Part shown: in pieces, positions 51,514 through 54,712 of the stretch
Numbering within the stretch: the stretch's first letter is position 1
How the letters are laid out: each line of letters opens with the position of its first letter
IMG/VR virus record: IMGVR_UViG_3300028844_003294
Span: 1-64,000 of that record
Length of the DNA: 64,000 nt
From: a virus
Reading direction: 5' to 3' (one strand)
Notes under the pieces: generated by a model
What the model was told of the DNA's origin: nothing
The model's database searches: none
What the model saw: the letters and a program-made list of their open reading frames with translations, nothing else
Program-made: the position numbers and the translations under genes

Positions 51514-53285
51514 TGCTTACTATAAAAAATGTGAGTGCAAAGAACTTTATGAGTATTGGTAACAATACTCAAGCAGTAAACTTTGACACAGAATCACTAA
51601 CATTGGTTTTAGGTCACAATCTAGATCTAGGTGGAGACGGTAGCAGAAATGGTACTGGTAAAACCACTATTATCAATGCACTCAGTTATGCATTATATGG
51701 TGATGCACTAACAAACATTCGTAAAGATAATCTCATAAACAAAACAAACGGCAAAGGCATGATTGTTACTGTTGATTTTGAAATCAACGGCACCGAGTAC
51801 AGAATTGAAAGAGGTCGTAGGCCAAATGTATTAAAGTTTTTTGTGAATGGGTCTGAGGCGGCCGATGATGAACAACAGGGTGATAGCAGAGAAACACAAA
51901 AAGACATTGAAAAAATAATTGGTTTCCCTCATAATATGTTTAAGCATTTAATTGCACTAAACACATATACCGAACCTTTCCTCAGCATGAAAACAAATGA
52001 TCAACGTGATATGATTGAGCAGTTGCTAGGAATTACTGAAATTAGTTCAAAAGCAGAAATACTAAAAGAAAAATTAAAGGAAACTCGAGATAGAATTAAA
52101 GAAGAAGAGTTGCGAATACAAGCAGTAAACAATGCCAACGAACGTATTGAAAAAAATATAAAGGACATTGAATTACGTGGTAGAGCATGGGCTAAGAACA
52201 AAGAAGACAAGGTTCAACAATTACAAACTAGTCTAGATGCATTACAACAAACTGATATCGATGCAGAATTAGAAAACCATAGACAAGCAACAGAAATAAA
52301 TCAAAAATATACACAAATACAGAGTGTACAAAATGAGGTTAAACAACTTACAACTAGTTTAAAACGCAATGAAGGTAACCTTGCAACACTTGTTAAAAAT
52401 ATTAAACTTGCTAAAGAAGGTATATGTCCTGCGTGTGAACAAAGTACAGCACATTTAGATACGCACGAAGAATACACAACGGATTTAGAAACTAAACTAG
52501 CAGAAGAAAACTCTTACAGCAAAGAGCTACAAACTAAATTATCAACATGTGAAAAGCAATTGATTGACTTAGGCGAGTTACCAGAAACACCAATTACATT
52601 TTATAACAACATGGAAGATGCATTACAACACATGCATAACGTTGAGACAATAAAATCTCAAATAGATGAAAAAATTAAAGAACAAAACCCATACACTGAA
52701 CAAGTTGAACAACTAAAAGAAAATGGTATGGAAGAAATTAGTTACGACTTAATAAACGAACAAACTTATTTAAAAGAACACCAAGAATTTTTACACAAAT
52801 TGTTGACCAGTAAAGATAGTTTTATTCGTAAGAAAATTATTGATCAGAACTTGCAGTATCTAAACTATAGGCTAGGACACTATTTAGACAAACTAGGCTT
52901 ACCACATGATGTTAAGTTTAGCAGTGATCTGAGTGTAGAAATTACAGAGTATGGCAGAGATTTAGACTTTGATAATTTAAGCAGAGGTGAACGTAACAGA
53001 CTTATATTAGGTATGAGTTGGGCGTTCAGAGATATCTACGAAAGCCTAAATAGACCAATGAATTTGATGTGTATAGATGAACTGGTAGACAGTGGCATGG
53101 ATACCACTGGTGTTGAAAATGCATTGGCAGTTCTTAAGAAGATGGGTCGAGAAGCAAATAAGAACGTCTTCCTTATATCACATAAGGAAGAACTGCAAGG
53201 TCGTGTAAATAACGTCTTGTATGTAATCAAAGAAGGAGGATTCACTAGTTATAGCAATGACATTGAAATCCTCGAAGAGACTTAA
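51513..53285 (+). CDS. 46: Recombination endonuclease subunit gp46 (Rad50-like ATPase)
   Basis: A 590 aa SMC-type ATPase, partner of gp47. It has a Walker A loop (GSRNGTGKTT, residues 43-52), a long coiled coil interrupted near residue 306 by a CPAC zinc hook, the ABC signature LSRGERNRL near 488 and a Walker B LMCIDE near 518. Size is close to T4 gp46 (560 aa). All motifs look intact. The gene overlaps gp47 upstream and the GIY-YIG gene downstream. Confidence 0.95.
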   Translation: MLTIKNVSAKNFMSIGNNTQAVNFDTESLTLVLGHNLDLGGDGSRNGTGKTTIINALSYALYGDALTNIRKDNLINKTNGKGMIVTVDFEINGTEYRIERGRRPNVLKFFVNGSEAADDEQQGDSRETQKDIEKIIGFPHNMFKHLIALNTYTEPFLSMKTNDQRDMIEQLLGITEISSKAEILKEKLKETRDRIKEEELRIQAVNNANERIEKNIKDIELRGRAWAKNKEDKVQQLQTSLDALQQTDIDAELENHRQATEINQKYTQIQSVQNEVKQLTTSLKRNEGNLATLVKNIKLAKEGICPACEQSTAHLDTHEEYTTDLETKLAEENSYSKELQTKLSTCEKQLIDLGELPETPITFYNNMEDALQHMHNVETIKSQIDEKIKEQNPYTEQVEQLKENGMEEISYDLINEQTYLKEHQEFLHKLLTSKDSFIRKKIIDQNLQYLNYRLGHYLDKLGLPHDVKFSSDLSVEITEYGRDLDFDNLSRGERNRLILGMSWAFRDIYESLNRPMNLMCIDELVDSGMDTTGVENALAVLKKMGREANKNVFLISHKEELQGRVNNVLYVIKEGGFTSYSNDIEILEET

Positions 53286-53710
53286 TGAGTGCATGGTACT
53301 ATAAAGGACAAGTAGTAGACGAATTACCCGAAGGTTGTGAAGCCATTGTTTATCTTATAACCAATAATACAAATGGTAAGAAATATGTTGGTAAAAAATT
53401 AGCAAAGTTCAAAACAACTAAACCTCCCTTAAAAGGAAAAAAGAATAAACGTAGAGGCACTAAAGAAAGTGACTGGCGTACTTATTGGGGTAGTTCTGAT
53501 AATTTAAAAGAAGACGTAGAAAAATTAGGTGAAGATAAATTTACCCGTGAAATACTTTACTATTGTCCTAGTAGAGGAGTTGCTAGTTACATAGAGGCAA
53601 GAGAACAGTTCGAAAGAAAGGTTTTAGAATCAGACGATTATTACAATGGAATTATCAATGTTCGAATAGGCGGTTCAAAAATTTTGCGAGAATCTCTTAA
53701 AGAGTTATAA
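53285..53710 (+). CDS. GIY-YIG nuclease-like protein
   Basis: A 141 aa protein starting with a GIY-YIG-type fold: EAIVYLITNNTNGKKYVGKK, with VYLI in place of GIY and YVG in place of YIG. A basic segment (KGKKNKRRGTKES) follows, then SDWRTYWGSSDNL and YIEAREQFERKVL, in which a glutamate could bind metal. Similar genes lie near gp46 in other marine T4-like phages. It may be a homing-type or degradative endonuclease. The start overlaps the gp46 stop, and the stop borders the structured gene-free region. Confidence 0.65.
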   Translation: MSAWYYKGQVVDELPEGCEAIVYLITNNTNGKKYVGKKLAKFKTTKPPLKGKKNKRRGTKESDWRTYWGSSDNLKEDVEKLGEDKFTREILYYCPSRGVASYIEAREQFERKVLESDDYYNGIINVRIGGSKILRESLKEL

Positions 53711-54193
53711 GTATCAGTCAAGGCACATTACAGACACCCAGTCAGACTAACATAGGCACACACATAGGTCCATACACCACCCCATCGAGGCACATAATAT
53801 CGATTTCCTTGACAATCCGTTAAACACGGTGCGAGATTCTGGAATGTATGGCGTAAATGAGATACATACACACGACAACAGTATTAGATGATGCAGGCAA
53901 TGAAAAACAGCAACCTGCAAATTTGTATAACTGAACTCTACAAGGTTATACAGGTTTCCGTAAGTGCGAAAGCAGTGACGGTAGTGTAGGGGAGATAAGG
54001 CTTACCACTTCCCGTTTAAACACCCGAGTTAGAGATGGCGATGCTCATCATGATGACATCATTTTATTCACCCGGCAACGGGTGAATTATGGCTTAACTT
54101 TCATGATAACCTTTAATAATAAAAATTCTTCTAACAAAAACTGATATGAACGAAGTGAATGAAGTTTGCAGTTGGAAAGATACGAAGTATCTA
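53711..54193 (+). ncRNA. Candidate structured non-coding RNA
   Basis: This 483-base stretch has no convincing gene on either strand and is visibly richer in G and C than its surroundings. Pairings seen: GTCAAGG 53717-53723 with CCTTGAC 53807-53813; ATCGA 53784-53788 with TCGAT 53800-53804; TGTATG 53845-53850 with CATACA 53865-53870; GTATAAC 53925-53931 with GTTATAC 53945-53951, whose loop (53936-53942) can pair with 53985-53991 as a pseudoknot; CCGT/ACGG plus a TGC-GAAA-GCA hairpin at 53958-53981; a 9-bp stem at 54066-54087 closed by a GCAA tetraloop; and AGATAC-GAA-GTATCT at 54178-54192. GNRA loops (GAAA, GCAA) appear on the plus strand, which favours that orientation. Family and true ends are unknown. 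Confidence 0.55.
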
Positions 54194-54712
54194 TTAGAAA
54201 GACTGTAAATAAGTTATAGTGTCAGAATAACTTTTTCTTAAGTTTAAACTGAATAATTTAGTTAGTTCATTTATATTACTATGATCACAACCATGTTTTT
54301 TAGTAACATCTAAAATCATTATTTGTTGAGGGTTTATATATTTGTTATGTGAGGGATCTTCATGAGTTATGTATACAGGAAAATCATTTAGATTAAACAA
54401 CACATTACATTTTCTAGTAAATGGGTTTCTCCAACCTGTTAAAAAATCTTCATGAAGTTGTACTATTTGATTAGGATTTACATTTTCAAATCCTGCACTA
54501 TGTTCGGGTAATACTTCTATAGGACTTACTGCAAGTTTTATTTTATCTGCACAATTTAAATCTTTAACCATTAAAATATCTTGCGTCATGTCAGGCGTGT
54601 CTGCTCTATGCATAAAATACTTTTTATCATCTGGTATAGTAGTAGATATTTCTTCTTCTAAAGACAATAACAAATCTACATCATAATCAAAATTTAATAC
54701 AGTACTAAACAT
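54194..54712 (-). CDS. 2-oxoglutarate/Fe(II) oxygenase-like protein 1
   Basis: A 172 aa protein with VQLHEDFLTGW (H87-x-D89), a strand CNVLFNLNDFPVYI, then MILDVTKKHGCDHS with a distal H140 and SLNLRK (R159). H-x-D...H...R in a beta-rich context is the iron and 2-oxoglutarate site of non-haem dioxygenases, especially aspartyl/asparaginyl hydroxylase-like proteins. It overlaps and probably descends from the same ancestor as the next gene. AAGGAG lies 8 nt before the ATG. The substrate could be a protein or nucleotide. It converges on the structured RNA candidate. Confidence 0.55.
   Translation of the reverse strand: MFSTVLNFDYDVDLLLSLEEEISTTIPDDKKYFMHRADTPDMTQDILMVKDLNCADKIKLAVSPIEVLPEHSAGFENVNPNQIVQLHEDFLTGWRNPFTRKCNVLFNLNDFPVYITHEDPSHNKYINPQQIMILDVTKKHGCDHSNINELTKLFSLNLRKSYSDTITYLQSF

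What the first reader, a model, noticed from the sequence alone, without database searches (positions are those of the whole stretch)
53711..54193. Candidate novel structured RNA between gp46/GIY-YIG genes and two oxygenase-like genes
A 483-base gene-free segment in an otherwise fully packed genome has many nested pairings: a long-range 7-bp helix (53717-53723/53807-53813), a hairpin whose loop can form a 7-bp pseudoknot (53936-53942/53985-53991), and two GNRA tetraloop hairpins, one with a 9-bp GC-rich stem (54066-54087). Composition differs from neighbours. I found no tmRNA tag/CCA end, RNase P core or group I intron P7 signature. Large ornate phage RNAs such as GOLLD and ROOL exist, but I cannot assign this one.
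Basis: partly seen in the sequence, partly recalled or inferred. Interest (0 to 1): 0.85.

Follow-up and report, generated by a model that had tools for sequence, protein, structure and literature searches.

The report
Phage structured RNA with repeated address
A gene-free stretch of this marine phage genome encodes a genuine ~470-nucleotide folded RNA, shared by hundreds of T4-like phage fragments and by some bacterial mobile elements, whose core holds two pseudoknots and two identical copies of a fast-changing short sequence that looks like an address for an unknown partner.

Summary
The finding is real. The segment 53711-54193 is a structured noncoding RNA on the + strand. Aligned with 21 relatives from other viral contigs, 98.2% of cells in the 73-pair model are paired. 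46 of the 73 pairs change on both sides, against 21.5 in shuffles. G-U pairs outnumber A-C mismatches 111 to 5, which shows folding as RNA and fixes the strand. Two pseudoknots are supported by many compensatory changes. One (PK1) is new. A model of the core finds the RNA in many viral contigs and in integrated elements of Sphingomonadales, Beijerinckiaceae and Polynucleobacter. Rfam does not recognise the phage form. A bacterial relative does match Rfam's Methylobacterium-1 RNA (function unknown), so this is an unrecognised phage branch of that RNA class. The strangest feature is a 6-8-nt sequence that differs between RNAs but occurs twice, identically, in nearly every RNA. This is the strongest covariation in the molecule and it is not base pairing. 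No complementary partner was found in cis. I infer a trans-acting RNA with a duplicated, element-specific recognition sequence. Its target and function remain unknown.

The parts
53706..53713 (+). promoter-like box TATAAGTA overlapping the stop of the GIY-YIG gene
   Evidence: ATAA[CGT]TA lies just upstream of the RNA in 37 of 40 marine relatives against 4% of random 100-mers. The word itself is not enriched in the window, so promoter function is inferred.
53718..53780 (+). variable leader with GGCA/GGCACA repeats
   Evidence: mean 3.0 GGCA per 130-nt leader against 0.5 at random; poorly conserved in length
53785..53803 (+). 5' domain hairpin (UCGA/UCGA stem, 53785-53788 with 53800-53803)
   Evidence: 4 pairs, all with double changes, 98.8% paired (helix 1)
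53817..53829 (+). 5' domain hairpin CCG/CGG
   Evidence: 4 pairs, all with double changes, 96.5% paired (helix 3)
53861..53885 (+). P1, 5-bp helix GAUAC/GUAUU with A/C-rich loop
   Evidence: 100% paired, 2 of 5 pairs with double changes (helix 4)
53893..53918 (+). P2 with near-invariant loop (consensus GGCUCUGAGAAAAAGCAACC; here GGCAAUGAAAAACAGCAACC)
   Evidence: 4 of 5 pairs with double changes, 96% paired over 52 diverse RNAs.
53919..53957 (+). P3, long hairpin whose loop forms PK2
   Evidence: 8 of 10 pairs with double changes in the marine clade (helices 6 and 7)
53936..53940 (+). PK2 5' strand CUCUA (P3 loop)
   Evidence: pairs with 54030-54034; CUCUA/UAGAG, CGUAA/UUACG, CUCCA/UGGAG, CUUAA/UUAAG (helix 8; among the top signals)
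53960..53964 (+). PK1 5' strand GUAAG
   Evidence: pairs with 54001-54005; 94.6% of cells paired, 4 of 5 pairs with double changes, more than 20 different strand combinations such as GUAAG/CUUAC, GUGGG/CCCAC, GCGUA/UACGC, GUCGU/ACGAC
53989..54013 (+). P5 hairpin GGGG..CCCC whose loop holds the PK1 3' strand
   Evidence: 99.2% paired in the marine clade (helix 12); 80.9% over the diverse set (helix 4)
54001..54005 (+). PK1 3' strand CUUAC
54030..54034 (+). PK2 3' strand UAGAG
54048..54057 (+). X1, first copy of the duplicated variable element (UCAUGAUGAC)
   Evidence: matches X2 at the variable positions in nearly all of 40 marine relatives; strongest covariation in the RNA (z=20), not complementary
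54067..54086 (+). P7 hairpin UUCACCCGGCAACGGGUGAA between the two copies
   Evidence: 97.4% paired with double changes; loop not conserved as GNRA (helix 13)
54101..54110 (+). X2, second copy (UCAUGAUAAC)
54126..54176 (+). P8, 3' domain helix (approximate limits)
   Evidence: 7 of 8 pairs with double changes, 97.1% paired (helix 14)
54178..54192 (+). P9 terminal hairpin AGAUAC-GAA-GUAUCU
   Evidence: 4 of 6 pairs with double changes, 100% paired (helix 15); no U-run follows
53285..53710 (+). SegE-type GIY-YIG endonuclease gene, usually directly upstream of the RNA; a linked gene, not part of the RNA
   Evidence: PF19835, 114.9 bits; 36 of the 80 GIY-YIG loci carry the RNA by model R1; some RNAs lack this neighbour

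Best explanation
The segment is a gene for a ~470-nt noncoding RNA transcribed in the same direction as gp46 and the GIY-YIG gene. Its core (P1, P2, P3, P5 plus pseudoknots PK1 and PK2) is shared with RNAs of integrated elements in bacteria and is related to Rfam's Methylobacterium-1 RNA. Shown: it folds as RNA, it is conserved, the strand is known, it travels with phages and other mobile elements, and it carries two identical copies of an element-specific sequence X flanking hairpin P7. Inferred: the pseudoknotted core presents the two X copies so that both recognise one partner in trans (an RNA or DNA sequence by pairing, or a dimeric protein), and that partner differs between phages. It would thus act as an element-specific trans-acting RNA during infection or maintenance of the mobile element.
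For: Structure: 73 pairs, 98.2% paired, 46 with double changes against 21.5 in shuffles; slid versions at most 43% paired. PK1 holds over 52 diverse RNAs including four bacterial ones, and PK2 in the marine clade. Strand: G-U to A-C ratio 111:5. Family: the covariance model finds the window at 95.9 bits, E 1e-27 (the window's own RNA is in the training alignment), 36 of 80 GIY-YIG loci, 6 of 296 Sphingomonadales, 5 of them clear, 4 of 248 Beijerinckiaceae (at least 3 look genuine), and two copies in one Polynucleobacter. Bacterial copies lie near integrases or recombinases. X: the strongest covarying columns are X1-X2 with identical letters. When the copies are located by flanks alone, 39 of 55 are identical, against 11.2 shuffled with a maximum of 19. 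There is no cis partner, which leaves a partner in trans as the simplest reading.
Against: No transcript has been seen; promoter and ends are inferred. No target of X was found: X and its complement are not enriched in the 5-15 kb flanks, and the window shows no significant excess of the extended word. Trans recognition is therefore inferred by elimination. The link to Methylobacterium-1 rests on bridging relatives, not on a direct score for the window.
Confidence: 0.5

Rival explanations
1. X1 and X2 are alternative partners of one element inside the same RNA, so the RNA is a two-state switch.
For: Two identical copies are what competing strands would look like.
Against: The exact complement of X is absent from -450..+520 of most RNAs. 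No other column covaries with the X columns above z about 6, against 20 for X1-X2.
Confidence: 0.1
2. X copies are binding sites (operators or iterons) for a DNA- or RNA-binding protein of the element; the covariation reflects co-evolution with that protein.
For: Within-element identity and between-element divergence are typical of operator or iteron repeats. A small ORF that looks like a ribbon-helix-helix protein by eye follows the RNA in several bacterial elements.
Against: No such neighbour was seen in the phages. Spacing and flanks are tied into an RNA fold, with only two copies. The ribbon-helix-helix assignment had no Pfam support.
Confidence: 0.2
3. It is a phage RNA that assembles into homo-oligomers (GOLLD- or ROOL-like), with X as an intermolecular contact.
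For: Large pseudoknotted phage RNA. GOLLD and ROOL are phage or prophage RNAs that form cages (PMC12286853).
Against: Identical copies cannot pair with each other unless palindromic, and most X sequences are not. No GOLLD or ROOL match. No tRNA in the window, so no tRNA island beside it there.
Confidence: 0.1
4. It is an unusual DNA element (replication origin or recombination site) rather than an RNA.
For: It sits between the gp46 side and the baseplate-type gene cluster, and the cassette can be inverted relative to gp46.
Against: G-U to A-C asymmetry of 111:5, and two conserved pseudoknots with G-U intermediates.
Confidence: 0.05

Closest known systems
Methylobacterium-1 RNA (Rfam RF01712; Weinberg et al. 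2010, PMC2864571)
   Same: Same order P1-P2-P3 followed by a CCG(U) strand. The Polynucleobacter relative of this RNA (L311) matches RF01712 at 49.9 bits (threshold 40) over the same helices, and its second copy scores 39.4 bits.
   Different: The phage forms tested do not match RF01712. RF01712 covers 103 positions and lacks the long GAGAAAAAGCAA loop, P5, PK1, PK2, P7 and the duplicated X. Its function is unknown.
GOLLD and ROOL RNAs
   Same: Large, pseudoknotted RNAs carried by phages and prophages (PMC12286853).
   Different: No sequence or structure match in Rfam scans. About 470 nt, with no tRNA in the window. Oligomer formation untested.
Two-piece tmRNA of the marine phage Melnitz (PMC9004378)
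   Same: Structured RNA in a marine T4-like phage that also has the same GIY-YIG gene.
   Different: ARAGORN and Rfam find no tmRNA here. Model R1 found nothing in the 12-kb Melnitz stretch searched.

Membership tests
Methylobacterium-1 RNA (RF01712) | covariance-model score at or above the 40-bit gathering threshold | tested here: not met
   The window and 17 phage loci gave no match at threshold, and nothing for RF01712 at E up to 10 over the window RNA. The bacterial relative L311 meets it.
Methylobacterium-1 RNA (RF01712) | helices P1, P2 and P3 in that order, then CCGu | tested here: met
   L311 aligns to RF01712 and to R1 over the same helices. The window has P1, P2, P3 and CCGU in the same order.
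tmRNA, one- or two-piece | tRNA-like domain and tag reading frame | tested here: not met
   ARAGORN and Rfam find no tmRNA at the RNA in the window or in relatives
GOLLD / ROOL | match to the Rfam model of the family | tested here: not met
GOLLD / ROOL | homo-oligomeric nanocage | not testable with these tools
   needs native gels or cryo-EM
Group I intron or RNase P RNA | match to the Rfam model | tested here: not met
   no match at gathering threshold or at E up to 10
RNA-guided mobile elements (bridge RNA, omega RNA) | adjacent cognate nuclease or recombinase of the IS110, IscB or TnpB type | tested here: inconclusive
   Phage neighbours are SegE GIY-YIG and gp46. Bacterial copies lie near serine or tyrosine recombinases of ordinary families, and neighbours vary. 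Not every neighbour was profiled.

The most novel reading that the evidence does not exclude
A widespread class of mobile-element RNA that uses a duplicated, rapidly evolving 6-8-nt address, held by a conserved double-pseudoknot core, to recognise a nucleic-acid partner in trans in an element-specific way: a guide-like RNA unrelated to CRISPR, OMEGA or bridge RNAs.
Probability: 0.2. Interest if true: 0.9.

Novelty: new variant of a known kind. Interest (0 to 1): 0.68.

Why it matters
It links a fifteen-year-old orphan Rfam family to phages and integrated elements and supplies a full architecture, two pseudoknots and a duplicated variable element that make its function testable. An identical-copy, non-complementary covariation as strong as this is unusual and points to a recognition function.

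Tried and rejected
tmRNA, including relaxed ARAGORN on relatives: rejected. Rfam at gathering and permissive thresholds on the window and relatives: no family for the phage form. Named phages: no significant nucleotide match for four diverse RNAs in 50,697 records. Plasmids: no match for a Sphingomonadales copy. RF01712 in 297 and 248 alphaproteobacterial genomes: none, but the controls were silent too, so absence is not shown. Two of the six bacterial pattern hits (L307, L310) match only the 18-nt word and were discarded. Searching for what X pairs with: in cis, in flanks and in the window, all negative. Intrinsic terminator and sigma-70 promoter scans: nothing on the + strand.

Full report
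OBSERVATION. The window is part of a 72,152-base virus record. Between the GIY-YIG ORF (53285-53710) and the convergent ORF 54194-54712 no plausible gene is present. Single-sequence folding is unremarkable (z -1.6), and no tRNA, tmRNA or Rfam family is found.

RELATIVES. The GIY-YIG protein brought in 80 viral loci. About 22 of them carry an alignable ~480-nt segment directly downstream, with more distant versions in others. Nearly all of these contigs hold the RNA. An 18-nt word found six bacterial contigs; four are true homologues: Erythrobacteraceae, Sphingomonadaceae, Polynucleobacter and Alsobacter. A covariance model of the core, R1, recovers the window at 95.9 bits, 36 of the 80 GIY-YIG loci, 6 of 296 Sphingomonadales genomes, five of them strongly, 4 of 248 Beijerinckiaceae, of which at least three look genuine, and two copies 44 kb apart in one Polynucleobacter. 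The window's own RNA and the four bacterial homologues are in the model's training alignment, so those matches are partly by construction.

STRUCTURE. RNAalifold on 22 sequences gives 82 pairs, 49 with changes on both sides. A 73-pair model including both pseudoknots is 98.2% paired against 85.3% in shuffles and at most 43% when slid, and 46 pairs have double changes against 21.5. Over 52 diverse RNAs, P2 is 96% and PK1 94.6% paired, with four of five pairs doubly changed in each. PK1 appears in more than 20 strand combinations, e.g. GUAAG/CUUAC, GUGGG/CCCAC, GCGUA/UACGC, GAGCG/CGCUC. PK2 is the P3 loop with a segment downstream of P5: CUCUA/UAGAG, CGUAA/UUACG, CUCCA/UGGAG. Reading the sequences by eye suggests the same pairing in distant clades, including the bacterial RNAs. 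G-U pairs outnumber A-C mismatches 111:5 in the nested helices, so the + strand folds as RNA. This pairing, and the indels between relatives, also argue against a reading frame.

DUPLICATED ELEMENT. Downstream of PK2, a short sequence X occurs twice, about 50 nt apart, flanking hairpin P7. In a mutual-information scan of 40 full-length marine RNAs the two copies give the strongest signal in the molecule (z=20, with a further pair at 15.7), with identical and not complementary letters. Located by conserved flanks alone in a broader set, 39 of 55 RNAs have identical hexamers, against 11.2 in shuffles with a maximum of 19; the exceptions look like misplaced anchors. X varies widely: UCAUGA in the window, and AGAUGA, GAAUAA, AAAUGA, ACCGAA, UGGUAA and others elsewhere. 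Bacterial RNAs also carry it by eye, e.g. CGAUCAUA twice in L335. No partner was found in cis, and neither X nor its complement is enriched in flanking DNA.

CONTEXT. In most phages the order is gp47, gp46, (small ORF), GIY-YIG, RNA, next to a baseplate-type gene cluster. In several phages the GIY-YIG plus RNA unit is inverted relative to gp46, and in others the RNA has no GIY-YIG neighbour. So the RNA is separable from the endonuclease. In bacteria it lies in or beside integrated elements with tyrosine or serine recombinases. A promoter-like ATAA[CGT]TA box precedes the RNA in 37 of 40 marine relatives, and the leader is rich in GGCA repeats. Both are of unproven function.

KNOWN FAMILIES. 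The Polynucleobacter copy matches Methylobacterium-1 RNA (RF01712) above threshold, over the same helices. That family was reported in 2010 from Methylobacterium and marine metagenomes (PMC2864571), and I found no other paper in the library that mentions RF01712. The phage forms themselves do not match RF01712, so they are not filed as members. They are a phage branch of a wider superfamily, and the model in Rfam covers only part of the architecture described here. GOLLD and ROOL are comparable in spirit but not in sequence.

MECHANISM. Shown: a conserved + strand RNA fold with two pseudoknots, mobile distribution, and a duplicated variable element. Inferred: transcription as an independent ~470-nt RNA, and presentation of two identical recognition sequences to one partner in trans. 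The partner, and hence the function, is unknown. Confidence that this is a genuine structured RNA is about 0.97, that it belongs to a Methylobacterium-1 superfamily about 0.8, and that X acts as a trans address about 0.35.

Noticed in passing
L018, L009, L010, L050, L156, L040, L088: The GIY-YIG plus RNA cassette is inverted relative to gp46/gp47 while keeping its internal order, as if it moves or flips as a unit.
   Followed up: partly
window 53706-53780: A promoter-like ATAA[CGT]TA box and GGCA repeats precede the RNA in nearly all marine relatives, though the window is depleted in the T4 late-promoter word TATAAATA (3 found, 12 expected).
   Followed up: partly
G002 contig C27, 65931 and 110304 (L329, L330): One Polynucleobacter genome has two copies of the RNA 44 kb apart, apparently with the same X sequence.
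   Followed up: partly
L337 7952-8077 and L338 8249-8370: Alphaproteobacterial variants with a different P2 loop (ACUGUGACAACCACAA or GAGAAUUAC) but intact PK1; probably closer to the original Methylobacterium-1 form.
   Followed up: partly
L325 10160-10548 and equivalents in L324, L326, L327, L328: Small ORFs follow the RNA in Sphingomonadales elements; the first looks like a ribbon-helix-helix protein by eye, but Pfam gave no match.
   Followed up: no
   Followed up: partly
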